From positions 62,001 through 126,000 of the forward strand of contig NZ_FNAT01000004.1 in the NCBI RefSeq assembly GCF_900102015.1: a stretch of 64,000 bases of DNA. The letters run 5' to 3'. This DNA is from Limimaricola pyoseonensis (lineage in GTDB: Bacteria > Pseudomonadota > Alphaproteobacteria > Rhodobacterales > Rhodobacteraceae). Shown one piece after another: positions 5,062-35,498 of this stretch. The position numbers and the translations under genes are program-made. Positions within the stretch are counted from its first letter, which is position 1, and each line of letters starts with the position of its first letter. A model generated the notes under the pieces. That model worked only from the letters and a program-made list of their open reading frames with translations. It did not search any database and was not told the DNA's origin.

Positions 5062-6120
5062 TCAGGCCCGCATCGCGCGGGCCGTCTCGGCGATCAGTTC
5101 GAGGTCGTGCAAGGAATCCTCGAGCCCGGTTCGCACGGGCGCGCCTTCCGTCACCGCCGCGTGGAAGGCGTCGAGCTCGACCCGGAAGGGGTCCTCGTAG
5201 AACGGGCCGATCGTTTCGCTGCGGGCGCCGTTCGGGCCCTGCCCGGTGATCGTGAGCCTTGTCGGCAGGTTGCGGATATAGGGCGTGTCGGTGGTCAGCG
5301 CGTAGCGGCTGTCGTTGGTCAGGATCTCGATCCCGGCATCGAAGACCGGGATGTCGGTGATCACCGCCTCGTAGCTGCAGACGAAATGGCCGTAATCGTA
5401 GATCACGCTGACGCTTTCGCCGCCGGCGCGCTGGCAGGCCGCGACGATGCCGCGCGGGGGGCCGAGCAGGTCGCGCATCGCCGAAAGGCTGTGCGAGGCG
5501 AGGCCCGTGAGCACCCTGTAGGCGCGGATCTCCTCCCGCGAGGCCTCCGCGCCGATCGCGGCGCGCACCAGCCGTTCGGGCAGCGCCCGCGCCTCCGGCG
5601 ACGGGTCGGGCAGGTCGCGTGGGCGCAGCACCGGCCGGGTCTGGGCGGTGAAGAACGGCGCCTCGCAGATCAGGTCGCGGATGCGCACGTGGCGGATCGT
5701 CTCGGCGGCCGGCATCCTGTCGCGCAGCGCGAGGAATGGCCGGGCATAGCGGCGCATGTAGCCCACGAAGACCACACCGCGCGCCGGCCGGCCCAGCAGC
5801 GGGCGCAGCTCGCCTTCGGTCAGGCAGGCGGGCTTCTCGACGAAGACATGCTTGCCCGCCGCGATCGCCGCCTCGAGCTGCGGCGCGTGGAACTGGTCGG
5901 GGGTGAGCAGGAAGACCGCGTCGAGATCCGGGTCTTCGAGCAGCCGGTTCGGATCGGTGCTGCGCAGCCCCGCCCCGTAGCGCCGCCCGATCGTCTCGGT
6001 CAGCTCGGCCGAGAGGTCGGAGACGGCGGCGATCTCGTAGCGCGGATCGTCGGCCAGAAGCGGCAGGTGCATGAGCTGGGCCACCTCGCCCAGGCCGATC
6101 AGGCCGACGCGCAGGGTCAT
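5062..6120 (-). CDS. Gfo/Idh/MocA-family oxidoreductase (island A)
   Basis: 352-residue NAD(P)-dependent dehydrogenase of the Gfo/Idh/MocA family. An N-terminal Rossmann fold starts with VGLIGLGEVAQ (residues 5-15); the conserved EKP is at residues 95-97 in FVEKPACLTEGE; a C-terminal alpha/beta dimerisation domain follows. It is the last gene of a seven-gene minus-strand operon and overlaps the isomerase upstream by 4 bp (ATGA). In such operons these enzymes oxidise a sugar, sugar acid or cyclitol at one hydroxyl. It would act on the product of the nearby hydrolases; the exact substrate is not readable. Confidence 0.88.
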   Translation of the reverse strand: MTLRVGLIGLGEVAQLMHLPLLADDPRYEIAAVSDLSAELTETIGRRYGAGLRSTDPNRLLEDPDLDAVFLLTPDQFHAPQLEAAIAAGKHVFVEKPACLTEGELRPLLGRPARGVVFVGYMRRYARPFLALRDRMPAAETIRHVRIRDLICEAPFFTAQTRPVLRPRDLPDPSPEARALPERLVRAAIGAEASREEIRAYRVLTGLASHSLSAMRDLLGPPRGIVAACQRAGGESVSVIYDYGHFVCSYEAVITDIPVFDAGIEILTNDSRYALTTDTPYIRNLPTRLTITGQGPNGARSETIGPFYEDPFRVELDAFHAAVTEGAPVRTGLEDSLHDLELIAETARAMRA

Positions 6121-6959
6121 TCGAGCGTTCCTTTCAGGTAGTCGAGGTTGCGCCGGGCCAGCGCGGCGGGCGGCTCGGTCGCGGTCTCGGTCCAGTCCTG
6201 CTCGACCACCACCGGCCCGGCGAAGCCGGTGCCGGCGAGGCGCTGCAACAGGCCGGGGATGTCGACCGCGCCCTCCGCGAGCGGGCAGAAGATGCCGCGA
6301 TCCATCGCCCCGCGCGGGTCGATCCGCCCGGCCTGCAGATCGGCCGCGAGGCCGGGATCGACGTTCTTGAGATGCAGGTAGGCCAGCCGGTCGCCCGCCT
6401 CTTCCAGAAACGCCGCCGGATCGTCGCCCCAAGCGGCGTGGTGCCCGGTGTCGAGGCAGAGCGAAAGGCCGGTCTCGTCGAGCAGGCGCCGCACCTCGCG
6501 CGGCCGCTCGATCGCGGTGGCCAGATGCGGATGCACCGACAGCGTCAGGCCGAGCGCGCGGGCGCTGTCATCGGCCGCGCGCAGCTGCTCGAGAATGGCT
6601 TGCCAGGCCTCGGGTTCGGGCCCCCCGGGCCGGTAGCCCGCCCCGCCATCCATCACCACGACATGCGACGCCCCGCAGGCCGCGAGCAGCGCGCCGGTGC
6701 GGCGCAGCGCCGCGCACAGCGCCTCCGCGCCGCCCGGGCCGAGGAAGTCGTGCACATGCACCGCGCCTTCGAGGCCGAGCCGATGCCGCGCCAGCGCCGC
6801 GGCGAGCCGGTCGGGCTCCTCCGGCATGAAGCCGTAGGGGCCAAGCTCGGTCCCGGCATAGCCGGCTCCTGCCAGCTCGGCGAGGTAGCTCTCCCAGCCC
6901 AGCGGCGCGGTCTCGGCGTGAAAGACCCCCCATGACACCGGGGCGTTCGACAGGCGCAT
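6117..6959 (-). CDS. Sugar phosphate isomerase/epimerase family TIM barrel (island A)
   Basis: 280-residue xylose-isomerase-like TIM barrel of the IolE/IolH/UxaE-like superfamily. Likely metal-ligand regions are the Glu in GTELGPYG (near residue 38), the His in LSVHPH (near 162), Asp/His in CLDTGHH (near 190) and the final Glu in VVVEQDW near 255. It is translationally coupled to the dehydrogenase below (ATGA) and 3 bp from the PHP hydrolase above, so the three act in one pathway. An epimerase, isomerase or dehydratase step on a keto-sugar or cyclitol is plausible; the precise reaction is unknown. Confidence 0.83.
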   Translation of the reverse strand: MRLSNAPVSWGVFHAETAPLGWESYLAELAGAGYAGTELGPYGFMPEEPDRLAAALARHRLGLEGAVHVHDFLGPGGAEALCAALRRTGALLAACGASHVVVMDGGAGYRPGGPEPEAWQAILEQLRAADDSARALGLTLSVHPHLATAIERPREVRRLLDETGLSLCLDTGHHAAWGDDPAAFLEEAGDRLAYLHLKNVDPGLAADLQAGRIDPRGAMDRGIFCPLAEGAVDIPGLLQRLAGTGFAGPVVVEQDWTETATEPPAALARRNLDYLKGTLE

Positions 6960-6962
6960 GGC

Positions 6963-8356
6963 TCAGTCCTTCATCCAGATCGGGTTCGACAGGGCGCGCC
7001 GCAGCGGCTGGCGCGCGATCTCGGCCTCGCTCAGCCCCCAAGGCAGCCCGCCACGGCAATCCGCGAAGAACCGCTCCAGCAGCCGCTCGCGCGCGGCGAC
7101 GGCGTGGATCTCGGCCCGCAGGAAGCCGCGCGGCGACACGTCGGGGCGCAGCTCCGCACCCTCGCCGGAGATCGGCAGCCGCGCGATCTCGCCCGTGGCG
7201 TCCCACAGGCTCAGGAGGTCGCCCGCCGCGCCATCGGTCTCGATCGCGACGGTGGCGTCCGGCGTCGCGGTGCCGCCCATCTCCGCCCCGCCCATGCGCA
7301 GCGCCAGATGCGGGCCGTCCGGCGCCTCGGTGACGTAGCCCCGCCCGGCCCGCATCGCGGCCAGCAGCGCCGGCTCGCTCAGCTCCTCGGCCCAGAGCAC
7401 GGTGCAGGGCCGCGCCAGCTCGAACATCGTCTCGGGGCCGAGCCCCTCGGGCTGGTGGCGGTCGCTGCCGCCCAGCAGCGGCAGCCGCATCCCGGCGGCG
7501 AGCCGGTCCTGCCAGCGGCCGAGCGAGATCCAGTTCCGGGCCAGCCAGTGCTGCTGCCAGACCTCCATCGCGTCGGCCTCAGGCCAGTCGTGGCGCCACG
7601 GGATGTCGGGCTTGTCGTGGTTGATCGACAGCATGCCCCCCCGCGCATGCACCTCGCGCGCCAGGGCCTGCGCGTCGCCAGGCGCCCGCAGCCGGAAATC
7701 GACCCAGCCGTCGAGACCGAAGACATTGGCGTGGCCATGCTCTGTCGTCACCTCCATGCCGCGCAGGAACACCAGATCGGGCGAGGAGGCCGGCCCGAAA
7801 TGGTCCCATTGCGTCACCGTGTTGTGGTCGGTGACGGCAAGGAAATCGAGCCCGGCGCGGCGGGCGTTCGCATGCAGCGTCTCGGGCGCGCCCTTGGCGT
7901 CGGAGTGATGCGTGTGGCAGTGCAGGTCGCCGCGGTACCACCCGGCCCCCTCGCGCACGGCGCGGGCCGGGGCCGGCCTCGGCGCCGGATCGCGCGGCGC
8001 GTCGTCGAGGCCGATCTCGACCTCGATCTCCGTGCCGCCGGGCGGCAGCCGGTAGAGCCCGAGGATCACCCGCCAGCGCCCGGCCGGGATCGGCCCCGCG
8101 ACATAGCCCGGCGTCGCGGCGTCGGTCGCCACGAAGACCGCCTCGCGCGCGCCGCCGCTCCAGCCGCGAAAGCCCTCGCGTGCCGGGAATTCCCCGAGCC
8201 GCGGGTCGGCGCAGCCGAGATCGATCACGCAGTCGGGCGCCTTGGGGTAGCGCAGCGCGATGTCGATGCGGGTGGTGCCTTCCGGCACCTCGAAGGGCAC
8301 CTCGAGATAGGGGTCGCGCGCCTTGTCCTCGGGCGTCGCCCGCAGCCGGATCGCGG

Positions 8357-8360
<4 letters not shown>
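6963..8360 (-). CDS. CehA/McbA-type PHP-domain metallohydrolase (island A)
   Basis: 465-residue protein with an N-terminal beta-rich region (residues 1-140) and a PHP phosphoesterase-like domain. Metal-binding motifs are GDLHCHTHHSD (144-154), AVTDHNT (175-181), the EHGHANVFG block (around 208-215) and the late GGSDRHQ. CehA/McbA proteins are named after carbaryl hydrolases, but most relatives are thought to hydrolyse phospho- or carboxyl-esters. No signal peptide is visible, so it should act in the cytoplasm after import. It overlaps the transporter ATPase by 4 bp. A PHP hydrolase inside a sugar-import operon suggests that the imported compound carries an ester- or phosphate-linked group. 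Confidence 0.85.
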
Positions 8361-9457
<1,097 letters not shown>

Positions 9458-9461
9458 GGTT

Positions 9462-10355
9462 TTACGCCTTGATGCCGCCGAAGAACCGGAAGCCGAACTT
9501 CCAGCTGACGAAGAGATAGAGAAGCACGACCGGCAGCGAGTAGAGCAGCGCATAGGCCGCGAGCAGCGTGACGATCGGCGTGCCGGCCTCGGAGTAAAAC
9601 GAGTAGATCGCCACGGAGGCGGGCATCTTCTCGGCCGAGCGCAGCAGGATGAAGGGGATGAGGAACGAGCCCCAGATGTTGACGAAGGCCCAGACCACCA
9701 CCACCACGACGCCGGGCCGGATCACCGGCAGCGCCACGTCGAAGAAGGCTTGCACCGGCGAGGCGCCCGCGACCATCGCGCTTTCCTCGTAGCTGCGCGG
9801 GATGCCGTCGATGAAGTCGCGCAGGATGAACATCGCGGTGGGCAGGAGGCCACCCGCGAAGACCAGGATCACCGACAGGTGGGTGTCGATGATGCCGGCG
9901 CGGGTGATCATCAAAAAGATCGGCACCATCGCTGCCGAGCCCGACACCACCGAGGAGAAGAGCAGCAGCACGTAGGTGACCGCGCGCTTGCCCGGCAGGG
10001 GCGAGCGCGACAGCGCGTAGGAGGCGAGCGTCGCGGCCAGCGCCACCAGAAGCGTGCCGCCGACGCTCTGGATCAGCGAATTGCCGAGCGCGCGGATCGC
10101 GAAGGAGTTCTCCAGCACCTGCCGGAAGTTCGACAGGCTGAACGGCTCGGGGATGGCGAGGCCCAGCTCGGCGCGCGAGTTGAACGGCGCGAACAGGAAC
10201 CACACCAGCGGCAGCGCGAAGATCGCACCGATCAGCGCCGTGAAGAAGGCGAAGCCCGCCCGTCCGAGGAACTGCCGCAGATGGTCGGTCATGCCGTGCT
10301 CCTTGCGCCGGGCGGGCGCGCCCGCACCCATGGCCTGCTGCGACGACGCGCTCAT
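9462..10355 (-). CDS. Carbohydrate ABC transporter permease, MalG/UgpE type (island A)
   Basis: 297-residue inner-membrane permease with six main hydrophobic segments. The EAA loop that docks the ATPase reads EESAMVAGASPVQAF (near residue 200). The C-terminal FGFRFFGGIKA resembles the GG-containing tail of MalG-like subunits. The ATG at 10355 overlaps the upstream permease stop as ATGA; an internal ATG at the MTDHLRQ segment is an alternative. It forms a heterodimer with the preceding permease. Confidence 0.92.
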   Translation of the reverse strand: MSASSQQAMGAGAPARRKEHGMTDHLRQFLGRAGFAFFTALIGAIFALPLVWFLFAPFNSRAELGLAIPEPFSLSNFRQVLENSFAIRALGNSLIQSVGGTLLVALAATLASYALSRSPLPGKRAVTYVLLLFSSVVSGSAAMVPIFLMITRAGIIDTHLSVILVFAGGLLPTAMFILRDFIDGIPRSYEESAMVAGASPVQAFFDVALPVIRPGVVVVVVWAFVNIWGSFLIPFILLRSAEKMPASVAIYSFYSEAGTPIVTLLAAYALLYSLPVVLLYLFVSWKFGFRFFGGIKA

Positions 10356-11263
10356 GCCGCACCCCCCGGCGTGCGCTTGCGCGCCACCCACAGGTAGAAC
10401 AGCGCGAAGGCGAGGTTGATCAGCATCACCACCACGCCGACCGCGGCCCCCTTGCCGAAGTCGAAGTCGCGGAAGGCGACGCGGTAGGTGTAGATCGACA
10501 GCACCTCGGTCTGGTTGCCCGGCCCACCCTTGGTCAGCAGGAAGGGGGTGAAGACGTTGAAGGTCCACATGGTGATCAGGATCAGGTCGGTGACGACATG
10601 GCCGCGGATCAGCGGCAGGCCGATGTCGCGGAACTTCTGCCAGCTCGAGGCGCCGGCCACGTCGGCGGCCTGGAAGTAGCTCGGCGGGATCGAGGCGAAG
10701 GCCGAGTTGAACAGCATCATCGAGAAGGCAGTGCCGCGCCAGGTGTTGAACACCACGATCACCCAGAACGGGTAGTCGAGCAGCCAGTCGCCGCGCGGCA
10801 GCCCGACCGCGTCGAGCATGCCGTTCAGCGTGCCGCCGTCATAGTCGAGAAAGGCGAACCAGGCGAAGCCGATCACCACCTCGGGCAGGATCCAGGCGCC
10901 GATCACCACGGTCTCGGTCATGGCCTTCACCGGCTTCGGCACCTGTTGCAGCAGCCAGGCCAGCGCCATGCCGAGCGCTGCCTGCCCCAGCAGCGCCGAG
11001 AACAGCACGAACTGGATCGTCAGCACGAGGCTGAAGCCGAACTGGCCCGGATCGAGGAAGCGGTGCGGCGAGAACAGCTCGAGATAGTTGGCGAGCCCGA
11101 CGAATTCGGGGTTCAGCGCGGTCCGGCCCAGCAGGGTGCGGTTGGTGAAGGAGACGTAGATCACCCAGAAGAAGGGCACGATCACGAAGGCGCCGACCAG
11201 CAGGCCGGCAGGCGTTATGAAGGCCGCGCCGGCGCGCGGCGAGAGCAGGGAGAACCGCTTCAT
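10352..11263 (-). CDS. Carbohydrate ABC transporter permease, MalF/UgpA type (island A)
   Basis: 303-residue permease with six hydrophobic segments. The EAA motif reads QAADVAGASSWQKF (near residue 205) with the following LPLIRG. The start at 11263 (MKRFSLL) is the first Met after the intergenic gap. It lies 53 bp downstream of the binding-protein gene and overlaps the second permease by 4 bp. It lacks the large periplasmic P2 loop of enterobacterial MalF, as is normal for short CUT1 permeases. Confidence 0.92.
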   Translation of the reverse strand: MKRFSLLSPRAGAAFITPAGLLVGAFVIVPFFWVIYVSFTNRTLLGRTALNPEFVGLANYLELFSPHRFLDPGQFGFSLVLTIQFVLFSALLGQAALGMALAWLLQQVPKPVKAMTETVVIGAWILPEVVIGFAWFAFLDYDGGTLNGMLDAVGLPRGDWLLDYPFWVIVVFNTWRGTAFSMMLFNSAFASIPPSYFQAADVAGASSWQKFRDIGLPLIRGHVVTDLILITMWTFNVFTPFLLTKGGPGNQTEVLSIYTYRVAFRDFDFGKGAAVGVVVMLINLAFALFYLWVARKRTPGGAA

Positions 11264-11316
11264 CGGAAAATCTCGTCTGTCGGGGCGGCGGGGGCCGGGA
11301 CGGCCCCCGCCGGGGC

Positions 11317-12651
11317 TCACATCAGGCTGGCGGTGTTGTCTTCGCCGACGATCTCGGTGACCGCGTCCTTGTAGCGCGCCATCGCCTCCTCGGGCGTCAT
11401 GGAGCCGGAGACCACGGCCTCGGTCATGCGCTGGATCTCGGCCGAGACGGCGTTGTAGTTCGGGTCGTTCGGCCGCGCGGTGGTGAGCGGCAGGAGCACC
11501 GAGGAGGTCTCGGTCAGGAAGGCGTCGGTCGGCACCGGCACGTCGTCGCGGATGCGGATGCGCGGCTGGAACTCCTGGAAGGCGTCGAGCTGCTCCTTGG
11601 AGTTCATGTAGGCCAGAAGCTCCCAGGCCAGCTGCGGCGCGTCGGTGTTGGGGTTCATCACCCAGCCGGTGCCGCCGGAGATCGTGACGAAGTCCTGCCC
11701 GTTCCAGCCGGCGCCCGGCTCCTTGGCCGGCATCTTGGCCCAGGTCATCTTGGCGTCGCGCTCGGCCACCTCGAACTCCGATCCCGGCGCGGTGACCGAG
11801 CGGTAGAACCAGTCGCCCTCGACCAGCATCGCGGTCTTGGCGTCGCGGAAATTGGCGAAGGTGCGGTTGCGGCCGTCGCCCAGCTGCTGCGCCCGCGCGT
11901 CGCCCAGCTCCTCGTCGACATAGATCGTCTTGTAGAGGTTGAGCACGTCGAGGATGCCCTGGCTCTCGACGATGTAGCGGCCCTCCTCGTCGGTGATGCT
12001 CTCGCCGGTGCCGAGGATCGCCATCCAGTAGCCCTGCATGGTCGTCGCCTCGCCCATCGGCACCCCGGCGTTGAGCTGCAGCGGGAAGCTGTCGGGATGC
12101 GCCTGCTTCACCTGCCGCGCCGCCTCCAGAAGCTCCTCCCAGGAGGTCGGCTGGAAGCTTGCGGGGTCGATGCCCGAGCTTTCCAGCAGGTCGGCGCGGG
12201 CGAAGATCATCCGCACGTCGGTGCCCATGGCGATGCCGTAGGGCTGGCCGTCATAGGACATCAGCGCCTTGCTGCCGTCCGAGATGTGGCTCCAGCCTTC
12301 CCATTCCATCGCCTCGGGGCCGACCAGCTCCGCGATCGGCTTCAGCAGCCCCGCCTCGACGAAGTTCGGGATCAGGAAGCCGTCGAAGCCGGCGATGTCG
12401 GCCCCGGCGCCGGTCGAGAAGTCGAGCGCGAGCTGCTGGGTCAGCTGTTCGTCGCCGCCGGCGAACTCGTTCAGCGTCACCGTGACGCCGTCATGCGCCG
12501 CCTCGAAGCCGGGGATCACGCTGTCCTTGATCCAGTCGGCCAGCTCGCCATTCGCCCCGCCCGAGACGCAGCGGCAGGAGATCGACAGGTCCTGCGCCGC
12601 CGCCGGCGTCGCGACCACCAGCGCCAGCAGGGCGCCTTTCCACTTTAACAT
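11317..12651 (-). CDS. Extracellular solute-binding protein of the CUT1 family (island A)
   Basis: 444-residue periplasmic substrate-binding protein, first gene of the seven-gene operon. The signal peptide (residues 1-20, ending ATPAAAQ) gives export; the mature protein opens with SISCRC, two close Cys residues that may form a disulfide. The family-1 sugar-binding fold is suggested by GADIAGFDG, a central WEELLEAARQVK block and a late SKEQLDAFQEF block. I chose the ATG at 12651 because GGGGAGGA stands 6-9 bases upstream. Binding specificity is the key unknown of island A. Confidence 0.92.
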   Translation of the reverse strand: MLKWKGALLALVVATPAAAQDLSISCRCVSGGANGELADWIKDSVIPGFEAAHDGVTVTLNEFAGGDEQLTQQLALDFSTGAGADIAGFDGFLIPNFVEAGLLKPIAELVGPEAMEWEGWSHISDGSKALMSYDGQPYGIAMGTDVRMIFARADLLESSGIDPASFQPTSWEELLEAARQVKQAHPDSFPLQLNAGVPMGEATTMQGYWMAILGTGESITDEEGRYIVESQGILDVLNLYKTIYVDEELGDARAQQLGDGRNRTFANFRDAKTAMLVEGDWFYRSVTAPGSEFEVAERDAKMTWAKMPAKEPGAGWNGQDFVTISGGTGWVMNPNTDAPQLAWELLAYMNSKEQLDAFQEFQPRIRIRDDVPVPTDAFLTETSSVLLPLTTARPNDPNYNAVSAEIQRMTEAVVSGSMTPEEAMARYKDAVTEIVGEDNTASLM

Positions 12652-12716
12652 CAAACCATCCTCCCCATGGGTCGGCCCGGGGCGCCGTCGCGGTGGCCCG
12701 GCCTACGGCGCCCAGA

Positions 12717-12741
12717 GTGAACACGTTTTCAAACCAGTCAA
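12717..12741 (-). promoter_or_regulatory. LacI-type operator 1 with overlapping -35 (binding-protein promoter)
   Basis: On the minus strand TTGACT (12741-12736) is a good -35 for the island A operon. Immediately downstream, in the spacer, is the near-palindrome TGAAAACGTGTTCA (12731-12718), centred on CG as LacI-family operators are; 12 of 14 bases are symmetric. Its 18-bp context matches operator 2 in 16 positions. The -10 is weak by eye. Binding by the adjacent LacI protein is inferred. Confidence 0.65.
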
Positions 12742-12875
12742 GAAAAAATCATGCCGCAGGGGCAATCATTGCCGCACGAACCGCGATCCGGGGGCTTGGC
12801 AGCGGCGATTTCCACGCCATTATGGCGACATGGCGCTGGAGTCCGGCCAAATCCGGGCGACCGCGCAGCACCGTG

Positions 12876-12893
12876 TTTTGAAATCGTGTTCAC
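12876..12893 (+). promoter_or_regulatory. LacI-type operator 2 (upstream of lacI and DUF5054 gene)
   Basis: TTTTGAAATCGTGTTCAC lies just upstream of the regulator start. It matches the reverse complement of operator 1 in 16 of 18 positions and has the same central CG. The two sites are about 160 bp apart, one by each divergent gene, so one regulator could control both and itself, possibly with looping. Confidence 0.65.
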
Positions 12894-12908
12894 GAAAGGC
12901 GCCCTGCA

Positions 12909-13943
12909 GTGACGACACCGACCCGCCGCGCCACCGCCGGCATGGTCGCCGAGGCCGCCGGGGTCAGCCGGGTCGCGGTCTCGCGCGCCTTCAACCCCGA
13001 AGCCTCGCTCGACGCCGAAAAGCGCGCCCGCATCCTCGAGATCGCGCGCCGCATGAACTACGCGCCCGACCGCGCCGCCCGCGCGCTGAAGATGCGCCGC
13101 TCGCACCTCGTCGGCGTCATCGTCCCCGATGTCTGCAGCCCCTGGGAAAGCCAGGAGATCGACGCGCTCACCACCGCGCTGCAGGAGCGCGGGCTCGGCA
13201 CGCTGCTGTTCAAGACCCGCGCCGACCTGACGCTGGCGGATGCCACGCTGCGCAACCTGCGCAGCTTCAACCTCGACTCGGTGATCGCCTTCGCCGAATC
13301 CGTGGGCCCCGACCGGCTGCGCCCCTATCTCGACCGGGCGGTGCCGATCTATGTCGACTATCTCGGCGCCGGCACCCCGGCCACCGCGCTGGCCGATGTC
13401 GACCGGCTCGAGATCGACCTCGTACCCGGCATGACGCAGGCGGTGGCGCTGCTCGCCGGCCACGGCGCGCGCCGCGTCGCCTATCTCTCGGGCCGCCCCG
13501 GCAGCCAGGCCGAGCGCTCGCGCCGCGCCACGCTGGAGGCGCTCCTGTCGGCGCGGGGCCTGCCGCCGCCGCGCGTGGCGGCGGGCGACTTCACCTACGC
13601 CACCGCGCGGCAGGCGACGCTCGACCTCTTTCGTCTCGACGGCGGCGCCGACGCGATCTTCGCGGCCAACGACGAGAGCGCCTTCGGCGCCATGGACGCG
13701 CTGCGCCACGGGCTGGGCCTCGCGGTGCCGGGCGACGTCCACGTCGTCGGCTTCGACGACATCGCCCAGTCGGGCTGGGACAGCTACGCGCTGACCACGG
13801 TGAAGATCGATCTCGCCGCCCGGGTGCAGGCGCTGGTGCGGCTGATCCTGCGCCGCACCGGCCAGCCCGAGGCCCCGCCGCTGCGCGAGGCGCTGCCGAC
13901 CAGCCTCGTGGTGCGCAACACGGTCGGCGGAGGCGCGCCATGA
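12909..13943 (+). CDS. LacI-family transcriptional regulator (island A)
   Basis: 344-residue LacI/GalR regulator. The HTH reads MVAEAAGVSRVAVSRAFNP near residues 12-30, followed by the hinge 'ARALKMRRSHLVGVIVPD' and a sugar-binding periplasmic-type core with the late FDDIAQSGWDSYALTTV segment. The start is a GTG with AAAGG about 9 bases upstream. It overlaps the DUF5054 gene by ATGA and diverges from the importer operon. Two matching operators in the gap support autoregulation and control of island A, with a sugar or breakdown product as likely inducer. Confidence 0.93.
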   Translation: MTTPTRRATAGMVAEAAGVSRVAVSRAFNPEASLDAEKRARILEIARRMNYAPDRAARALKMRRSHLVGVIVPDVCSPWESQEIDALTTALQERGLGTLLFKTRADLTLADATLRNLRSFNLDSVIAFAESVGPDRLRPYLDRAVPIYVDYLGAGTPATALADVDRLEIDLVPGMTQAVALLAGHGARRVAYLSGRPGSQAERSRRATLEALLSARGLPPPRVAAGDFTYATARQATLDLFRLDGGADAIFAANDESAFGAMDALRHGLGLAVPGDVHVVGFDDIAQSGWDSYALTTVKIDLAARVQALVRLILRRTGQPEAPPLREALPTSLVVRNTVGGGAP

Positions 13944-15850
13944 CGCCCGAGACCATCCACCTCGTCTTTAAGACCCATCTCGACATCGGCTTCACCGACC
14001 ATGCCGAGGCGGTGCGCCGGCTCTACCACGACCGCTTCATCCCGCAGGCGCTGACCACGGCCGAGCATTTCCACCGCGAGAACCCCGACGCGCCGGCCTT
14101 CGTCTGGACCACCGGCGCCTGGCTGATCCACGACCACCTCGCCACCGGCACGCCCGACCAGGTCGCCCGGCTCGAGGCGGCGATCCGCGCCGGGTTGATC
14201 CGCTGGCACGCCCTGCCCTTCACCACCCATACCGAGCTGATGAGCCCGGCGCTGATCCGGGCCGGGCTGTCCTACTCGGCCGAGCTCGACGCCCGCTTCG
14301 GCCTGACCACCCGCGCCGCCAAGATGACCGACGTGCCGGGCCACACCATCGGGCTGGTGCCCGAGCTCGCCGCCGCCGGGGTGCGCTTCCTACATCTGGG
14401 CGTGAACGAGGCGAGCCCGGTGCCCGACCTGCCGGAGATCTTCCTGTGGCGCGCGCCTGACGGCGCGGAGGTGGTGGTGATGTACGACGCCTCCTATGGC
14501 GGCACGCATCTGCCCGAGGGCATGACCGACGCGCTGAGCTTCGCCCACACCGCCGACAATCTCGGGCCGCAATCCGTCGCGCAGACCGTGGTCGTGCACC
14601 GCGAGTTGCAGAAGCGCTTCCCCACGGCCCGCATCCGCGCCGCGACGCTCGAGGAGTACGGCGCGCTGCTCTGGGAGCGGCGCGACAGCCTGCCGGTCGT
14701 CACCTGCGAGATCGGCGACAGCTGGATCCACGGCGCGGGCAGCGACCCGGCGAAGCTCGCACGCTTCCGCGCGCTGCAGCGGCTCTACGACGGCTTCGAG
14801 GCCGAGGGTCTCGACCCCGGCAGGCTCGAATTCGGCCGCCGGCTCTGCATGGTGGCCGAGCACACCTGGGGCGTCGACATCAAGACCTTCCTGCGCGACG
14901 AGACCGCCTGGGACCGCGCCGATTTCGAGACCGCCCGCGCCACCGATCCGCGCTTCGCCTTCTGCGAGGCGTCCTGGGCCGAGCAGCGCGGCTATCTCGA
15001 CGCGGCCGTCGCAGCACTCGGCCCGCAAGACCGGGCCCGGGCCGAGGCGGCGCAGGCCCCTGCCCCGCCCGCCGCGGCGGGCGGCGACTGGCAGGTCTCG
15101 CACGACCCGGCCACCGGCGACATCCTCGCCCTGACCGCCCCCGACGGACGGGTGATCGCGGGCGCTTCGGGCGGGCCGCTGCTGGCGTTCCGCCACCAGA
15201 GCTTCGATGCCGCCGATATCGGCCGCCATCTCGACAGCTACCTGACCACCCGCCCGGACTGGGCGATCCTCGATCACGACAAGCCCGGCCTCGCCACGGC
15301 CAGGAGCGCCCGGTCGGTCGAGTGCATGCCGCGCGGGACCGACAAAGAGGCCGACGAGAGCGGCGTCTCGATCCTCGCGGTCCATGAGGGCCGCGACCAT
15401 GCCGAGACCGGCGCGCCGGCGCGGCTGCGCTGGCACGTCGCGCCCGGCCCAACCGCCAGCCGCGCCACGATCAGCCTCCGGATCGAGGGCAAGCCGGCCA
15501 ATCGCATGCCCGAGGCGGGCTTCGTGCATGTCGCGCCCGAGGGCGCGGGGCACTGGGAGGCGCTGAAGAGCGGCACCTGGACCGACCCCTCGCGCTCGGC
15601 CGAACGGGGCGGCGGCGCGCTGGCCGCGATCTTCGCGGCGCGCACGGCGACCGCGGCGGGGCCCCTGCGGATCACCCCGCTCGACGCCGCGCTGGCCGGA
15701 CCGCCGGTCGACCTGATGCGCTTCACCGCGAAGCCGCCGGCCTGGGAGGGCGCGCTGCGCTTCACGCTCTACACCAACAAGTGGGGCACCAACTTCCCGA
15801 TGTGGTGGGAGGGCGCGCTGCTGTCGCGCTTCGAGATCGAGCTGGGCTGA
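13940..15850 (+). CDS. DUF5054-family glycosidase (GH38-like)
   Basis: 636-residue protein. The N-terminal KTHLDIGFTD (residues 11-20) is the hallmark of DUF5054 proteins, which resemble the (beta/alpha)7 catalytic domain of GH38 alpha-mannosidases, where the HLD carries metal ligands. A second likely metal/nucleophile block is KMTDVPGHT (near residue 130), and a later conserved block is VAEHTWGVDIKTF (near 305). The C-terminal half is beta-rich. No signal peptide is seen, so it acts on an imported compound in the cytoplasm. It is cotranscribed with lacI (ATGA overlap). No DUF5054 activity is known to me; exo-glycosidase is inferred from fold and context. Confidence 0.85.
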   Translation: MTPETIHLVFKTHLDIGFTDHAEAVRRLYHDRFIPQALTTAEHFHRENPDAPAFVWTTGAWLIHDHLATGTPDQVARLEAAIRAGLIRWHALPFTTHTELMSPALIRAGLSYSAELDARFGLTTRAAKMTDVPGHTIGLVPELAAAGVRFLHLGVNEASPVPDLPEIFLWRAPDGAEVVVMYDASYGGTHLPEGMTDALSFAHTADNLGPQSVAQTVVVHRELQKRFPTARIRAATLEEYGALLWERRDSLPVVTCEIGDSWIHGAGSDPAKLARFRALQRLYDGFEAEGLDPGRLEFGRRLCMVAEHTWGVDIKTFLRDETAWDRADFETARATDPRFAFCEASWAEQRGYLDAAVAALGPQDRARAEAAQAPAPPAAAGGDWQVSHDPATGDILALTAPDGRVIAGASGGPLLAFRHQSFDAADIGRHLDSYLTTRPDWAILDHDKPGLATARSARSVECMPRGTDKEADESGVSILAVHEGRDHAETGAPARLRWHVAPGPTASRATISLRIEGKPANRMPEAGFVHVAPEGAGHWEALKSGTWTDPSRSAERGGGALAAIFAARTATAAGPLRITPLDAALAGPPVDLMRFTAKPPAWEGALRFTLYTNKWGTNFPMWWEGALLSRFEIELG

Positions 15851-18210: not shown

Positions 18211-18215
18211 GTCTG

Positions 18216-24740: not shown

Positions 24741-25550
24741 TCAGCCGTCCCGCTCCATGATCCACTCGACCTCCGGCGCCGGCACGAAACGCCAGTTGCG
24801 GCGGGGGCCCGCCATGACGTTGAGGTAGTACATCTCGAAGCCGTAGGGCGCGCCGCAGGGGTGATGCCCGCGCGGCACCAGCACCACGTCGTGGTCCTTC
24901 ACCGCCATGGTCTCGTCGAGCGAGCCGTCATCGGTGTAGACCCGCTGCACGCCGAAGCCCGAGGCCGGGTTCAGCCGGTGGTAGTAGGTCTCCTCGAGAT
25001 AGGTGATGCGCGGGAAATCGTCCTCGTCGTGGCGATGGCTGGGAAAGGACGACCAGTGCCCGGCCGGGGTGAAGACCTCCGTGACCAGCAGGCTGTCGGC
25101 GTAATCCTCGTTCTCCATCGCGATGTTGTTGATGTGCCGCGTGTTCGTGCCCTTGCCGCGCTCGGTGAGCGCGATGCCTTCGGGGCCGATGCGCCGCGCC
25201 TCGTGGCCGCCCTTCCCGGGCGCCGAGCAGACCGCGATGGTGCAGTCGGTCGCGGCCTCCGCAGCCCATTCGCTGCCGTTCGGCAGGTAGAGGCAATGCG
25301 GCGGCGTCTTCTCGAACACGTTCATCCGCTCGCCCAGCTCGCCCCAGTCGCGGCCCGCCCCCTCGACCCGGGCCCGGCCCTCGACCATGACGAGGATGAC
25401 CTCGCGGTCGCCGGTGACGTCGGCCACCCGGTCGCCCGCCCGCAGCCTGTGCAGCGCGAAACCGACATAGCGCCAGCCGGCGGTCTCGGGCGTGATCCGG
25501 TGCACCTCGCCGCGGGTGCCGAAGGGGCGGCGCAAAAGCGGGCCGGTCAT
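24741..25550 (-). CDS. iolB: 5-deoxy-glucuronate isomerase
   Basis: 269-residue cupin of the KduI/IolB family. It converts 5-deoxy-D-glucuronate into 5-dehydro-2-deoxy-D-gluconate in myo-inositol breakdown. Metal-binding residues lie in SSFPSHRHDEDDF (His-x-His around residue 172), then Glu in ITYLEETYYHR and His in VPRGHHPCGAPYG. Start: ATG at 25550 with GGAGGACGAGAC-like sequence upstream. It is the last gene of the minus-strand iol operon, 63 bp after iolE, and faces the AGE isomerase. Confidence 0.96.
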   Translation of the reverse strand: MTGPLLRRPFGTRGEVHRITPETAGWRYVGFALHRLRAGDRVADVTGDREVILVMVEGRARVEGAGRDWGELGERMNVFEKTPPHCLYLPNGSEWAAEAATDCTIAVCSAPGKGGHEARRIGPEGIALTERGKGTNTRHINNIAMENEDYADSLLVTEVFTPAGHWSSFPSHRHDEDDFPRITYLEETYYHRLNPASGFGVQRVYTDDGSLDETMAVKDHDVVLVPRGHHPCGAPYGFEMYYLNVMAGPRRNWRFVPAPEVEWIMERDG

Positions 25551-25613
25551 GTCTCGTCCTCCTTGTCGTTCTGTCCTGCGGCACCCGGCCAGCCGGGCCG
25601 GGCCCGCCATGCG

Positions 25614-26540
25614 TCAGCCCTGCGGCACCGGCGTCCGGTCGTCGACCGCGAGCCCGGCCCGCGCGCAGAGGTCGCGTATCGTCTCGTAGCCGAGCTTGGA
25701 GGCGTCGTAAGGCGCGACCTTGGCCGGGTCCTGCTCGGCCTCGACCACGATCCAGCCCTCGTATCCCATCGCCGCCAGCCGGTCGGTGACGGCGGCGAAG
25801 TCGATCGCGCCCTCCGGATCGCCCGGCACGGTGAAGGCGCCCGCCACCACCGCGTCGAGGAAGGACCAGCCCTCGGCCCGCGCGCGACGCGCCACGTCGG
25901 CGCGCAGATCCTTGTAATGCACGTGGCCGATCCGGTCGCCCCAGCGGTCGAGCACGGCCATCGGGTCGCCGCCGCCGAACACGAGGTGGCCGGTGTCGTA
26001 GAGCAACCCGACCTCCGCGCCCGAGCCCTCCATCAGCCAGTCGATGTCGTCCCCGTCCTCGACGATCGCGCCCATGTGGTGGTGGTAGGTCAGCGGCAGC
26101 CCCTCGCCCGCCATCCACTTGGCCAGCTCGGTGAGCTTGCGCGCATAGCCCGTCACCTCGTCGCGCGAGAGCTTGGGCCGGGCGTTGACCGGCACGGCGC
26201 GGTCGCCCTGCACGGTGTTCGAGCACTCGGCATAGACGAGGCAGGGCGCGCCGAGCGCGGCGAACTGCGCCACCTGCCCGGCGATCGCGGCCTTCTCGGT
26301 CTCGACGTCGTTGACCAGAAGGTTGCCCGAGCACCAGCCGCCGCAAAGCGCGAGCCCGTGGCCGTCGAGGTAGCGGCGCAGCTCCTCGGTGCCCGAGGGC
26401 ATGCGGCGGCCGCGCTCGATACCGGTATAGCCGATCTCGCGCGCCTCGCGCAGCGCCTGCTCCATGGTGAAAGCGGCGGTGAGGTCGGGCAGGTCGTCGT
26501 TCTGCCAGGCGATGGGGGAAATGCCGATCCGGACGCTCAT
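25614..26540 (-). CDS. iolE: Myo-inosose-2 dehydratase
   Basis: 308-residue TIM-barrel dehydratase that removes water from 2-keto-myo-inositol. Recognisable IolE blocks are GISPIAWQNDDLPDL (near residue 5), GIERGRRMP, GGWCSGNLL (near 66), LTYHHHMGAIVED (near 150) and LLYDTGHLVFGGGDP (near 180). Start: ATG at 26540, beside AGACCCCCCT on the plus strand, that is AGGGGGGTCT upstream in the gene's sense. It lies 83 bp downstream of iolD. Confidence 0.96.
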   Translation of the reverse strand: MSVRIGISPIAWQNDDLPDLTAAFTMEQALREAREIGYTGIERGRRMPSGTEELRRYLDGHGLALCGGWCSGNLLVNDVETEKAAIAGQVAQFAALGAPCLVYAECSNTVQGDRAVPVNARPKLSRDEVTGYARKLTELAKWMAGEGLPLTYHHHMGAIVEDGDDIDWLMEGSGAEVGLLYDTGHLVFGGGDPMAVLDRWGDRIGHVHYKDLRADVARRARAEGWSFLDAVVAGAFTVPGDPEGAIDFAAVTDRLAAMGYEGWIVVEAEQDPAKVAPYDASKLGYETIRDLCARAGLAVDDRTPVPQG

Positions 26541-26623
26541 AGGGGGGTCTTTCGGTTGAGAAAATGACAAGAACGGGCCGCGCGCGGCGGGAGGCATCCG
26601 CGCGCGGCCCTCGCGCTCCGGGC

Positions 26624-28453
26624 TCAGTTCAGCGCCCGGGCCCGGATCTGCGCCTCGTAGGCTTCGCGCTTCTCGCGCACCTGCGAGCGCTCCGAGACCT
26701 CCGGCACGGCCACGTCCCACCAATGCCCGCCATCGGGCGTCGAGGGGTAGGGGTCGGTGTCGATCACCACCACGAAGGGGCCGCTGGCCTGCCGGGCGCG
26801 TGCCAGCGCCTCCTCCAGCTCATTGATCGAGCCGACATGCACCGCCGCCGCGCCCATCGCCGCCGCATGGGCGGCGAAGTCGATGTTCGAGGCGTTCACG
26901 TGGTGGGAATGGTCGAGCAGGTTGTTGAACTCCGCCCCGCCGGTGCCGATCTGCAGCCGGTTGATGCAGCCGTAGCCGCGGTTGTCGGTGATCACCACGG
27001 TCAGGTCGAGGCCCAGCATCGCCGCCGTCGCCAGCTCGGAATTGGCCATCATGTAGGAGCCGTCGCCGAGCATGCAGACCACGTCGCGCCCGGGTTCGGC
27101 CATCTTGATGCCGATCGCGCCCGCGATCTCGTAGCCCATGCAGGAATAGCCGTATTCCATGTGATAGGCCCCCGGGCGCGGCGCCTTCCACAGCTTGTGC
27201 AGCTCGCCCGGCATGGTGCCGGCGGCGCACATCACCACCGTGTCCGGCCCCGAGGCGCGCTGCACCGCGCCGATCACCTGCTGGTCGGTCGGCAGGGCAT
27301 CATTGCCCTCCGGCGCGTCGGTGAGCGGATCGACGGCGGCGAACCACTCGGCCTTGAGCCTGGCGTCGGGCCGCGCGAAGCCATGATCGCCGAGCGCGTC
27401 CGAAAGTGCCTCGAGCCCGGCCAGCGCGTCGCAGCACAGGGGCTCCGCCCCGTGCTTCATTGCGTCATAGGCCGCGACGTTGAGCGAGACGAGCCGCCGT
27501 GCCGGGTTCCGGAACACCGTCCAAGAGCCGGTGGTGAAGTCCTGGAACCGCGTGCCGACGCCGAGCACGAGATCGGCTTCGGCGCAGACCGCGTTGGCCG
27601 AGGCCGCGCCGGTCACACCGACGGGGCCGAAGTTCAGCGCGTGGTCCCATGGCAGCGCCGACTTGCCGGCCTGGCTTTCGACCACGGGGATGCGGTGCGC
27701 CTCGGCGAAATGCCGCAAAGCCTCCGTCGCGCCGGCGTAATGCACGCCGCCGCCGGCGACGATCACCGGCCGCTTGGCCGCCTTCAGCATCTCCGTCACC
27801 GCGTCGAGTTCGACCGGGTCGGGCTGCGGGCGGCGGGTGCGCCAGACCTTCGGCGCAAAGAAGCGCTCGGGCCAGTCGAACGCCTCGGCCTGCACGTCCT
27901 GGCAGAAGGACAGGCAGACCGGCCCGCATTCGGCCGGGTCGGTCATCACCCGGAAGGCGCGCGGCAGCGCGGTCAGGAGCTGCTCGGGCCGGGTGATGCG
28001 GTCGAAATAGCGCGTCACCGGGCGGAAGCAGTCGTTCACCGACACGGTGCCGTCGCCCCAATCCTCGACCTGCTGCAGAACCGGGTCGGGGCCGCGGTTG
28101 GCGAAGACGTCGCCGGGGATCATCAAAAGCGGCAGCCTGTTCACATGCGCCAGCGCCGCGGCGGTGACCATATTCGTCGCCCCCGGCCCGATCGAGGAGG
28201 TCACGGCCATCGCCCGCCTGCGCCCCGACTGCTTGGCATAGGCGATGGCGGCGTGGCACATCGTCTGCTCGTTGTGGCCGCGCCAGGTGCGGAAGCGGTC
28301 GCGCTCGGCATGCAGCGCCTCGCCGATCCCGGCGACGTTGCCATGGCCGAAGATCGCCCAGATCCCGGCAAGGAAGGGCTCGCCATCCTCGTTGAGCTGC
28401 GCCGCGAGGTACTTCACCATCGCCTGCGCCGCGGTCAGCCGGATCGTCGTCAT
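26624..28453 (-). CDS. iolD: 3D-(3,5/4)-trihydroxycyclohexane-1,2-dione hydrolase
   Basis: 609-residue thiamine-diphosphate enzyme that opens the cyclitol ring in inositol breakdown. It has the N-terminal Pyr domain with the Glu of RGHNEQTMCHAAIAYAK (near residue 60), the central domain, and the C-terminal PP domain with GDGSYMMANSELATA (near 458) and the metal-binding continuation TDNRGYGC. The length is right for the family. Its ATG overlaps the iolC stop (ATGA). Confidence 0.96.
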   Translation of the reverse strand: MTTIRLTAAQAMVKYLAAQLNEDGEPFLAGIWAIFGHGNVAGIGEALHAERDRFRTWRGHNEQTMCHAAIAYAKQSGRRRAMAVTSSIGPGATNMVTAAALAHVNRLPLLMIPGDVFANRGPDPVLQQVEDWGDGTVSVNDCFRPVTRYFDRITRPEQLLTALPRAFRVMTDPAECGPVCLSFCQDVQAEAFDWPERFFAPKVWRTRRPQPDPVELDAVTEMLKAAKRPVIVAGGGVHYAGATEALRHFAEAHRIPVVESQAGKSALPWDHALNFGPVGVTGAASANAVCAEADLVLGVGTRFQDFTTGSWTVFRNPARRLVSLNVAAYDAMKHGAEPLCCDALAGLEALSDALGDHGFARPDARLKAEWFAAVDPLTDAPEGNDALPTDQQVIGAVQRASGPDTVVMCAAGTMPGELHKLWKAPRPGAYHMEYGYSCMGYEIAGAIGIKMAEPGRDVVCMLGDGSYMMANSELATAAMLGLDLTVVITDNRGYGCINRLQIGTGGAEFNNLLDHSHHVNASNIDFAAHAAAMGAAAVHVGSINELEEALARARQASGPFVVVIDTDPYPSTPDGGHWWDVAVPEVSERSQVREKREAYEAQIRARALN

Positions 28454-30357: not shown

Positions 30358-31178
30358 CACACCGTCCCCTCGAGCGAACCCTCGAGCTGCGCCAGCTCCT
30401 GCCCGCCGGCCATCAGGTCCTGCAGCTGCTCGGGCGTGATCTCACCGCGCCGCGCCGTGCCGAGCGTCTTGCCGCGGTTGAGCACGGTGAAGCGGTCGCC
30501 CACCGCCAGCGCGTGGCGCACGTTGTGGCTGATGAAGACCACGCCCACGCCCTGCTTGCGCACCCGGTCGATGGTGGCCAGCACGTTCGAGGTCTGGCGC
30601 ACGCCCAAGGCCGAGGTCGGCTCGTCGAGGATCAGCACGCGGGCGCCGAAATAGACCGCGCGGGCGATGGCGACGGTCTGGCGCTCGCCGCCCGAGAGCG
30701 TGCCGACCGCCTGGTCGGGGCCGCGCAGGTTGATGCCCATCTTGCGCATCTCCTCCACCGCCGTCTCGTTCATCTTCTGCACGTCCATCCGCTTGGTCGG
30801 GCCGCGGCCGATGGTGGGCTCGCGCCCCATGAAGAAGTTGCGCGTGACCGACATCAGCGGGATCATCGCCAGATCCTGGAACACCGTGGCGATGCCCGCC
30901 TCCATCGCGTCGCGCGGGCTGGAGAAGTTCATCGGCTTGCCGTCGATGGTGATCGTGCCGTGGGTCGGCTTGTGCACGCCCGACATGGTCTTGATGAAGG
31001 TCGACTTGCCGGCGCCGTTGTCGCCCAGAAGACAGTGGCACTCGCCGGGCCTCACGTCGAAGCTGACGCCGGCCAGCGCGATGATGTTGCCGAAGTGCTT
31101 CTCGATGTCGGTCATCTCGATGATCGGCCGGACATCGGTCGAGACGTCGCCGTGGTGAAAGGTCGTGTCCTGGGTCAT
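30357..31178 (-). CDS. Inositol/ribose-type ABC transporter ATP-binding protein (single domain)
   Basis: 273-residue ATPase of the CUT2 family with one ABC domain. Walker [10 protein letters not shown] is at residues 52-60, signature TLSGGERQ near 160 and Walker [13 protein letters not shown] near 180. CUT2 ATPases such as RbsA normally have two ABC halves; single-domain forms like FrcA are known in alphaproteobacteria and would work as homodimers. The operon (binding protein, permease, this gene, iolC) points to myo-inositol uptake, possibly also other cyclitols. Confidence 0.92.
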
Positions 31179-31179
31179 C

Positions 31180-32298: not shown

Positions 32299-32387
32299 GG
32301 CCTCATCCTCCCGATGAATAAAGAAGGGCCGTGGCGCGGCGATGTGCGCCACGGCCCGATGCGTCCGGCATCACGCTGGTCTGGGGG

Positions 32388-33314: not shown

Positions 33315-33406
33315 ATGTCCTCCCTGGTTGACCATGCGGGGCCTCCACCCCGCTGCGACGAGACCGGGCCTCCGGGCCCGGCCGGCCCCGATCCTCCCCG
33401 GAGCCA

Positions 33407-33452
33407 TATGGAACGTTTATTCCATAAAGGGGCGAATCACCCGCCCTGTCAA
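33407..33452 (-). promoter_or_regulatory. Inositol operon promoter with IolR-type operator over the -10
   Basis: On the minus strand TTGACA (33452-33447) and CTTTAT (33429-33424) are separated by 17 bp and form a good sigma-70 promoter. TATGGAA-N6-TTCCATA (33407-33426) is a perfect 7-bp inverted repeat that overlaps the -10. GGAA-N6-TTCC is the motif reported for the RpiR-type IolR of Sinorhizobium meliloti. Repression by blocking polymerase is the direct reading. Confidence 0.78.
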
Positions 33453-34279: not shown

Positions 34280-34328
34280 CTCGGTCTCTCGTCTTGACAG
34301 CTCCACCATTATCACCCCATGAGTACGA

Positions 34329-34346
34329 ATGGAATGAATATTCCGT
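34329..34346. promoter_or_regulatory. IolR-type operator between iolR and the plus-strand iol genes
   Basis: ATGGAA-TGAATA-TTCCGT contains GGAA-N6-TTCC and lies 14 bp before the plus-strand Gfo/Idh start and about 50 bp before the regulator. It matches the site at 33407-33426 in both half-sites and spacing. A TTGACA at 34294-34299 could be the -35 of the plus-strand genes, with a poor -10. Confidence 0.7.
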
Positions 34347-34359
34347 ATGGGAGGGAATC

Positions 34360-35475: not shown

Positions 35476-35498
35476 ACGCCAACCGAAAGGCTCCCCCC

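What the first reader, a model, noticed from the sequence alone, without database searches (positions are those of the whole stretch)
5062..15850. Island A: sugar importer joined to DUF5054 glycosidase and PHP hydrolase, an unassigned pathway
Seen: nine linked genes, with a CUT1 importer, CehA/McbA-type PHP hydrolase, TIM-barrel isomerase and Gfo/Idh dehydrogenase in one coupled operon (overlaps of 4 bp or gaps of 3-4 bp in most joints), divergent from LacI and a GH38-like DUF5054 protein. Known: none of these families alone fixes a substrate, and I know of no DUF5054 activity. Inference: an imported glycoside carrying an ester or phosphate group is cut by the two hydrolases, then isomerised and oxidised. 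All hydrolases lack signal peptides, so breakdown is intracellular.
Basis: partly seen in the sequence, partly recalled or inferred. Interest (0 to 1): 0.72.

Follow-up and report, generated by a model that had tools for sequence, protein, structure and literature searches.

The report
Probable glycosyl-inositol uptake and breakdown operon
A rare bacterial gene cluster probably imports a sugar-bearing inositol compound, perhaps a lipid head group from plants, algae or fungi, removes the sugar and any phosphate, and passes the inositol to a known pathway; the sugar and the phosphate are not yet proven.

Summary
In detail: nine tightly coupled genes in two divergent operons. The cluster recurs in scattered bacteria and has its own conserved LacI-type operator. 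DUF5054 has a GH38-like fold, a GH38-like profile and invariant metal and nucleophile residues, although Pfam does not call it GH38.

The new result is a link to inositol. In this window a complete iol pathway starts 9 kb away. In Oceanicola the operon runs on the same strand towards iolG-C-D-E-B. In Rudaea and one other genome it abuts iolG/C/D/B, and the cluster's own TIM barrel is the only strong IolE-like protein. In Silicimonas DUF5054, IolE, an IolG-like enzyme and two PHP hydrolases share one strand. Phosphodiester enzymes also recur: a phosphoinositide phospholipase C beside a PHP hydrolase in Rudaea, and GDPD plus an inositol-monophosphatase-family enzyme near eight loci.

Best reading: import and cleavage of a glycosylated, probably phosphorylated inositol. 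The sugar and the phosphate are inferred. Against it: most loci show no iol genes nearby, and distant DUF5054 relatives sit in other contexts. New variant of a known kind.

The parts
5062..6120 (-). Gfo/Idh/MocA dehydrogenase; a second dehydrogenase beside the canonical IolG at 35103-36500
   Evidence: PF01408 65 bits; best NCBIfam match IolG TIGR04380 86.5 bits over the N-terminal domain, cut-off 355; >=50% identical in 27 of 80 loci
6117..6959 (-). TIM-barrel protein, IolE-like (inosose dehydratase-like)
   Evidence: PF01261 101 bits; TIGR04379 IolE 110.9 bits, cut-off 290; phmmer to IolE structures 3cny and 9zmu, E about 1e-13; homologue is the only strong IolE-like protein of two genomes with iolB/C/D
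6963..8360 (-). CehA/McbA-family PHP metallohydrolase with N-terminal beta domain; proposed phosphoesterase
   Evidence: NF038032 248.7 bits, cut-off 80; A2 alignment of 20; AF2 model pLDDT 85, best Foldseek hit 3e38, E 1.2e-10 with TMq 0.35
8357..9457 (-). ABC ATPase (UgpC/MalK type)
   Evidence: PF00005 and TOBE_2; NF008653 387 bits, cut-off 432
9462..10355 (-). CUT1-type permease 2 (start 10355 or 10292)
   Evidence: PF00528; start read
10352..11320 (-). CUT1-type permease 1 (start 11320 or 11263)
   Evidence: PF00528; start read
11317..12654 (-). Extracellular solute-binding protein
   Evidence: PF01547 91 bits; nearest solved sequence 5ci5, E 3e-20
12718..12731 (-). Putative LacI operator TGAACACGTTTTCA, exact copy
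   Evidence: motif search over 48 intergenic regions; at <=1 mismatch in 63 of 80 loci, 0 in one mononucleotide shuffle of the same loci
12879..12892 (+). Second putative operator copy, 1 mismatch, just upstream of lacI
12909..13943 (+). LacI-family regulator
   Evidence: PF00356 and PF13377
13940..15850 (+). DUF5054 protein, GH38-like retaining glycosidase (predicted)
   Evidence: PF16477 118.7 bits; AF2 pLDDT 89; Foldseek rows 1-19 all GH38, best E 2.7e-22; hhalign to GH38 proteins prob 99.3, E 3.6e-20; H13, D15, D131, D206, H308 in 36 of 36
24741..36500 (.). Neighbouring inositol pathway that would receive the product: iolB 24741-25610(-), iolE 25614-26723(-), iolD inside 26624-29479(-), iolC 28450-30360(-), CUT2 importer 30357-33407(-), RpiR-like regulator 33449-34315(-), extra Gfo/Idh 34294-35475(+), iolG inside 35103-36500(+)
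   Evidence: IolB 346.7, IolE 373.6, IolD 910.9, IolC 409.7 and IolG 417.0 bits, all over their cut-offs; the label RpiR-like for 33449-34315 rests on an NCBIfam match of 38.6 bits, far below its cut-off

Best explanation
The cluster is a substrate-inducible uptake and breakdown unit for a glycosylated inositol, most likely one that carries a phosphate, such as the head group left when a glycosyl-phosphoinositol lipid is cut by phospholipases. Proposed steps: (1) the SBP and CUT1-type importer bring it into the cell; (2) the CehA/McbA PHP enzyme removes a phosphate ester; (3) DUF5054, a zinc-dependent GH38-fold retaining glycosidase, cuts the sugar from the inositol; (4) Gfo/Idh oxidises the inositol unit (or an isomer) and the IolE-like TIM barrel dehydrates the keto-inositol; (5) IolD, IolB and IolC, nearby or elsewhere in the genome, finish the job. 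LacI represses both divergent operons from two operator copies. Shown: gene order, conservation, fold, residues, operator, and linkage to iol and phosphodiester genes. Inferred: every reaction, the inositol moiety, the phosphate and the sugar; an alpha-mannosyl link is a guess from the GH38 fold.
For: Inositol: complete iol set in the window; Oceanicola L008+L095 has PHP-TIM-Gfo, a LacI-family gene, then iolG-iolC-iolD-iolE-iolB on one strand; Rudaea (L050/L096) and L084/L097 have iolG, iolC, iolD, iolB beside Gfo-TIM-importer, with the cluster TIM at 140.8 and 132.2 bits and the next IolE match at 63 and 67; Silicimonas L151 has DUF5054, IolE over cut-off, IolG-like, and two PHP proteins on one strand. 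DUF5054 was found in only 1 of 250 genomes of Rudaea's order, namely Rudaea itself, so the cluster was probably acquired beside inositol genes. Phosphate: Rudaea order DUF5054, TonB receptor, PI-PLC-C1 397 bits, CehA/McbA 285.6 bits; receptor-PI-PLC-CehA/McbA triad at 7 of 16 PI-PLC sites examined, one inside an iol cluster; GDPD plus IMPase-family genes near eight loci in several arrangements. PHP link: 6 of 80 loci keep DUF5054 with PHP but another importer. GH38. Regulation.
Against: TIM and Gfo are far below the IolE and IolG cut-offs, and canonical IolE occurs in 45 of 50 genomes searched, so TIM is redundant in most of them. iol genes lie within about 20 kb of DUF5054 in only 5 of 51 genomes (own plus 50); many drafts are fragmented, so other distances could not be measured. 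TIM is present in 28 of the 52 loci with this importer. Full-length PI-PLC occurs in 2 of 50 genomes, two more have short partial matches, and in L084's genome it is on another contig. GDPD and IMPase families are broad; the IMPase-like protein of L076 matches HisN best, below cut-off. 22 of 80 loci lack the LacI, SBP and PHP at the thresholds used. Distant relatives sit elsewhere: Phocaeicola L090 beside GH35, GH2, GH3 and SusD-type genes, Chloroflexi L086 beside a GH38-like gene. The Asp that follows the zinc His in GH38 is Thr309 in DUF5054 in 36 of 36. Two of 20 PHP proteins have Gln for His147.
Confidence: 0.5

Rival explanations
1. The substrate is an uncharged glycosyl cyclitol such as galactinol or another galactosyl- or mannosyl-inositol; the PHP enzyme removes an acyl or other ester rather than a phosphate. 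The inositol still goes to the iol pathway.
For: Same inositol linkage; many hosts are rhizobia and other plant-associated genera; CehA/McbA is named after carbamate (carbaryl) hydrolases (recalled; one search saw listings only).
Against: PI-PLC next to CehA/McbA and GDPD/IMPase neighbours point to phosphodiesters. No galactose-specific gene was noticed in the neighbourhoods, but none was searched for.
Confidence: 0.2
2. Gfo and TIM cleave by oxidation and beta-elimination: Gfo makes a keto-inositol while the glycosyl or phosphate group is still attached, and the IolE-like TIM expels that group instead of water, giving the IolD substrate directly.
For: Gfo and TIM occur as a pair (27 of 28 loci with TIM also have Gfo; the other, L051, has TIM alone) although canonical IolG is also present; two genomes have no other strong IolE-like protein. 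Oxidation-elimination chemistry by Gfo/Idh with AP_endonuc_2 partners is recalled from 3-keto-glycoside and C-glycoside pathways.
Against: Makes DUF5054 or PHP redundant for that bond, yet both are kept in more loci than the pair. No direct evidence on the reaction.
Confidence: 0.12
3. The substrate is an unrelated glycoside, for example a compatible solute like that of the neighbouring MGH1-like operon, and nearness to iol genes is coincidence or general clustering of sugar genes.
For: The next operon (15878-23299) encodes an MGH1-like hydrolase (406 bits; glucosylglycerate hydrolase model 345.6, cut-off 550). Most loci show no iol genes close by.
Against: Linkage in at least three different arrangements (Oceanicola, Rudaea/L084, Silicimonas) plus this window; TIM as the only strong IolE-like protein in two genomes.
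Confidence: 0.15

Closest known systems
myo-Inositol catabolism (iolG, iolE, iolD, iolB, iolC)
   Same: Gfo/Idh plus IolE-like TIM barrel; linked to iol genes in this window, Oceanicola, Rudaea, L084 and (iolE and iolG-like only) Silicimonas
   Different: Extra importer, GH38-like DUF5054 and PHP hydrolase; the Gfo is additional to canonical IolG; TIM is below the IolE cut-off
GH38 alpha-mannosidases (for example SpGH38, Bl_Man38A/B/C)
   Same: Predicted fold, invariant H13, D15, D131, H308 matching the zinc site and nucleophile of SpGH38 (H13, D15, D125, H351; passages of PMC2815779), D206 near the acid/base position
   Different: 636 aa instead of about 830-1180 for the matched structures; no Pfam GH38 match at E<=0.01; the Asp after the zinc His is Thr
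CehA/McbA-family metallohydrolases (NF038032)
   Same: 248.7 bits over a cut-off of 80
   Different: Found with DUF5054, and a 33-37% identical relative found with PI-PLC; the substrate of this branch is unknown
CUT1 sugar import operons with LacI (for example UgpC/MalK type)
   Same: SBP, two permeases, UgpC-like ATPase, divergent LacI with its own operator
   Different: The hydrolytic genes carried

Membership tests
GH38 | GH38 fold | tested here: met
   AF2 model pLDDT 89; Foldseek rows 1-19 all GH38, TMq 0.55-0.66, best E 2.7e-22
GH38 | Pfam Glyco_hydro_38N / 38C profile match | tested here: not met
   only PF16477 at E<=0.01
GH38 | Zinc ligands and nucleophile Asp | tested here: met
   H13, D15, D131, H308 in 36 of 36; equivalents from passages of PMC2815779 and alignment. 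MAFFT did not place H308 on the canonical HD motif column; that match is by eye
GH38 | General acid/base Asp | tested here: inconclusive
   D206 invariant; hhalign and MAFFT place it at DNG/DGGGGP, off by one column against the Martelella GH38
GH38 | Asp directly after the zinc His (substrate contact) | tested here: not met
   Thr309 in 36 of 36
GH38 | alpha-Mannosidase activity | not testable with these tools
   needs assay
IolE (TIGR04379) | Score over the curated cut-off of 290 bits | tested here: not met
   110.9 bits; 140.8 and 132.2 in Rudaea and L084
IolE (TIGR04379) | Fills the IolE gap in an otherwise complete iol set | tested here: met
   two genomes; one of them, L084, is a MAG. Not so in this window, where a canonical IolE is present
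IolG (TIGR04380) | Score over the cut-off of 355 bits | tested here: not met
   86.5 bits; canonical IolG is separate
CehA/McbA metallohydrolase (NF038032) | Score over the cut-off of 80 bits | tested here: met
   248.7 bits
CehA/McbA metallohydrolase (NF038032) | PHP motif residues conserved (motif assignment recalled) | tested here: met
   H149, D154, D178, H179, E203, H210, H248, D300, H302 in 20 of 20; H147 in 18 of 20, Gln in L075 and L076
DUF5054 (PF16477) | Score over the cut-off of 37.6 bits | tested here: met
   118.7 bits
LacI regulator with local operator | Conserved palindrome in the divergent intergenic region | tested here: met
   two copies in the window; 63 of 80 loci; in the own genome one further near-match at <=1 mismatch

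The most novel reading that the evidence does not exclude
A dedicated bacterial pathway for the head groups of glycosyl-phosphoinositol lipids (such as mannosyl- or glycosyl-inositol phosphorylceramides of fungi, plants and algae, or phosphatidylinositol mannosides), in which DUF5054 is the first glycosidase known to act on the sugar-inositol bond and the CehA/McbA PHP branch is an inositol-phosphate or cyclic-phosphate hydrolase.
Probability: 0.3. Interest if true: 0.75.

Novelty: new variant of a known kind. Interest (0 to 1): 0.6.

Why it matters
If true, it assigns a role to an unnamed GH38-like family (no paper in the held library contains the word DUF5054) and to a branch of a widespread PHP hydrolase family. 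It would also show how soil, root and marine bacteria recover carbon and perhaps phosphorus from glycosylated inositol lipids, and it gives a concrete ligand list for an orphan importer.

Tried and rejected
Considered and set aside: TIM as a generic sugar isomerase (best matches are IolE). Gfo as the canonical IolG (IolG is separate in this window and in the four other genomes searched). alpha-Mannoside from the Martelella neighbour GH38: no locus of the 80 matched that GH38 at E<=1e-10, so this rests on one record. General PI-PLC link: full-length in 2 of 50 genomes, so it cannot be a universal partner. The iol operon as part of the same LacI regulon: no operator copy at <=3 mismatches of the 16-mer elsewhere in the window. 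Solved-structure search with the DUF5054 profile gave 0 hits at E<=0.01, and phmmer with the single sequence gave one chance-level hit; the GH38 link comes from fold and profile comparison, and from tblastn to two annotated GH38 proteins (E 2e-12 and 3e-6; the first compared again). No paper describing a bacterial pathway for glycosyl-inositol head groups was noticed in the listings (held open-access library only; listings are capped; one search found 0). Papers: PMC2815779, PMC4174763 and PMC12482443 were seen as passages; others as listings only. A rough chance estimate for iol linkage (40 kb of about 5 Mb, so about 0.4 expected of 51 against 5 seen in at least three arrangements) is mine, without a formal test, and the genomes are not independent.


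Full report
What is there. Window 5062-15850 holds two divergent operons. Minus strand: SBP, two CUT1-type permeases, ATPase, CehA/McbA PHP protein, TIM barrel, Gfo/Idh. Plus strand: LacI and DUF5054, overlapping by 4 bp. No tRNA and no Rfam match was found in the window.

Conservation and spread. DUF5054 is sporadic: 5 of 295 genomes of the window's family, 2 of 398 of its phylum (both in the same family), 1 of 250 of Rudaea's order, 33 of 72,556 plasmid records (24 with at least 80% of the query). At the thresholds: SBP 52 of 80, each permease and the ATPase 50, LacI 53, PHP 49, TIM 28, Gfo 27. Gfo occurs only with TIM; one locus (L051) has TIM alone. Six loci keep PHP with DUF5054 but lack this importer (L007, L030, L066, L075, L076, L082). 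Nine have the SBP without a PHP at >=45%; some of these are cut by contig ends. Twenty-two have none of LacI, SBP and PHP at those thresholds.

Regulation. The palindrome TGAACACGTTTTCA recurs in the SBP-lacI spacer. A 16-mer version occurs within 3 mismatches in 40 of 48 intergenic regions; the 14-mer occurs with at most 1 mismatch in 63 of 80 loci and 0 times in one mononucleotide shuffle. The window has two copies, 12718-12731 and 12879-12892; in the own genome only one other near-match exists at that threshold. Twelve loci without the LacI at >=45% keep an operator; in ten or more of these, Rhizobium-type loci, it lies roughly 230-290 bp upstream of a DUF5054 gene.

DUF5054 is GH38-like. 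A 36-sequence alignment gave a model with pLDDT 89. Foldseek rows 1-19 against the PDB are all GH38 (best E 2.7e-22); GH57 enzymes follow. Profile comparison with three GH38 proteins gives probability 99.3, E 3.6e-20 over 605 columns. H13, D15, D131, D206 and H308 are the same in 36 of 36. SpGH38 uses H13, D15, D125 and H351 for zinc and D125 as nucleophile (passages of PMC2815779). Differences: no Pfam GH38 match, no PDB hit by sequence profile, shorter length, and Thr in place of the Asp after the zinc His. So it works like a GH38 enzyme; membership is not established.

The PHP enzyme. It scores 248.7 bits to CehA/McbA. Nine of ten motif residues are invariant in 20 sequences; His147 is Gln in two. 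The model (pLDDT 85) is nearest to 3e38, a two-domain PHP-like protein, with modest TM-score 0.35. In 12 genomes chosen by me, 10 have a match over the cut-off, and in 8 of these the best match lies in or within about 16 kb of the DUF5054 cluster; the choice favoured genomes with the cluster. In 14 control genomes the family rings in 12, over the cut-off in 4, so it is not rare in itself.

The inositol link. (a) The window holds IolB, IolE, IolD, IolC and IolG over their cut-offs at 24741-36500, with an MGH1-like CUT1 operon in between. (b) In Oceanicola granulosus (L008+L095) the operon PHP-TIM-Gfo is followed by a LacI-family gene and iolG-iolC-iolD-iolE-iolB on the same strand. (c) In Rudaea (L050/L096) and L084/L097, iolG, a regulator-like gene, iolC, iolD and iolB adjoin Gfo-TIM-importer-DUF5054; their only strong IolE-like protein is the cluster TIM, 140.8 and 132.2 bits against 63 and 67 for the next. 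(d) In Silicimonas (L071/L151) DUF5054, IolE (312.7 bits, over cut-off), an IolG-like protein (268.8, below cut-off), LacI, a peptide-type importer, two PHP proteins and an endonuclease/exonuclease/phosphatase-family protein lie on one strand. Counting iol genes within about 20 kb of DUF5054: 5 of 51 genomes (own plus 50), the next same-contig distance I noted being about 52 kb in L055's genome. Canonical IolE itself is common (45 of 50), so only adjacency counts; many drafts are fragmented.

The phosphate link. In Rudaea the gene order after DUF5054 is TonB receptor, PI-PLC-C1 (397 bits), CehA/McbA (285.6 bits). I fetched 16 of 23 PI-PLC sites known; 7 of 16 carry the receptor-PI-PLC-CehA/McbA triad, one of them inside an iol cluster (L118), and 9 of 16 do not. 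PI-PLC occurs full-length in only 2 of 50 DUF5054 genomes, with two further partial matches. GDPD plus an IMPase-family gene lie near DUF5054 in L007, L073, L076, L078, L081 and L085, and downstream of Gfo in 2 of 12 extended loci (L022 as L155, L042 as L158); L032 has the IMPase-type gene alone. The arrangements differ: divergent, convergent, codirectional, some kb apart, or behind Gfo.

Reading. The simplest account of all links is a glycosylated inositol, probably phosphorylated, imported intact and stripped inside the cell. Fungal lipids of the type Man-alpha-2-inositol-phosphoceramide exist (abstract and passages of PMC4174763), so such head groups are available in nature; that they are the substrate is a guess. 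Every enzymatic step is inferred.

What speaks against it is listed in the evidence fields: weak IolE and IolG scores, iol linkage in a minority, rhizobial loci with DUF5054 but no LacI, SBP or PHP of this type, the Phocaeicola relative (35% identical) beside GH35, GH2, GH3 and SusD-type genes, and the Chloroflexi relative next to a GH38-like gene with no iol gene found in its locus. DUF5054 as a family is therefore unlikely to be inositol-specific throughout.

Noticed in passing
window 15878-23299: A second CUT1 operon with an MGH1-like glycoside hydrolase (PF22422 406 bits; glucosylglycerate hydrolase model 345.6 of 550) and LacI lies between island A and the iol genes.
   Followed up: partly
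window 30357-33407: CUT2-type importer beside the iol genes whose binding protein matches the rhizopine SBP model at 338.8 bits (cut-off 420).
   Followed up: no
window 34294-35475 and 36504-37283: Extra Gfo/Idh protein resembling levoglucosan dehydrogenase (335.9 of 650 bits) and a hydroxypyruvate-isomerase-like TIM barrel next to iolG.
   Followed up: no
L114, L117, L118, L119, L120, L122, L123: TonB receptor, PI-PLC-C1 and CehA/McbA hydrolase as a recurring triad at 7 of 16 PI-PLC sites examined, one within an iol cluster: a possible phosphatidylinositol utilisation locus.
   Followed up: partly
L087:1723-4818: Canonical GH38 alpha-mannosidase gene directly after the PHP gene in Martelella mediterranea plasmid pMM170.
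   Followed up: partly
L089 and L020-type Rhizobium loci: Solitary DUF5054 gene with an operator copy upstream (in the L020-type loci) but no cluster LacI, beside genes annotated in L089 as an acyl-homoserine-lactone synthase and a LuxR regulator.
   Followed up: no
L007:7716-8228 and L085:12020-12523: Small nucleotidyltransferase-like gene beside DUF5054 or PHP; the L007 one resembles lincosamide nucleotidyltransferases far below the cut-off (99.5 of 325 bits), L085 is in the same cluster by similarity.
   Followed up: no
L086:5249-8086: A second, longer GH38-like gene close to DUF5054 in a Chloroflexi MAG.
   Followed up: no
L151:18263-19033: Endonuclease/exonuclease/phosphatase-family gene at the end of the Silicimonas DUF5054-IolE-PHP run.
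   Followed up: no
L126:18706-21805: Genes annotated hxsB, hxsC, hxsA (His-Xaa-Ser system) a few kb from the DUF5054 cluster on an Agrobacterium plasmid.
   Followed up: no
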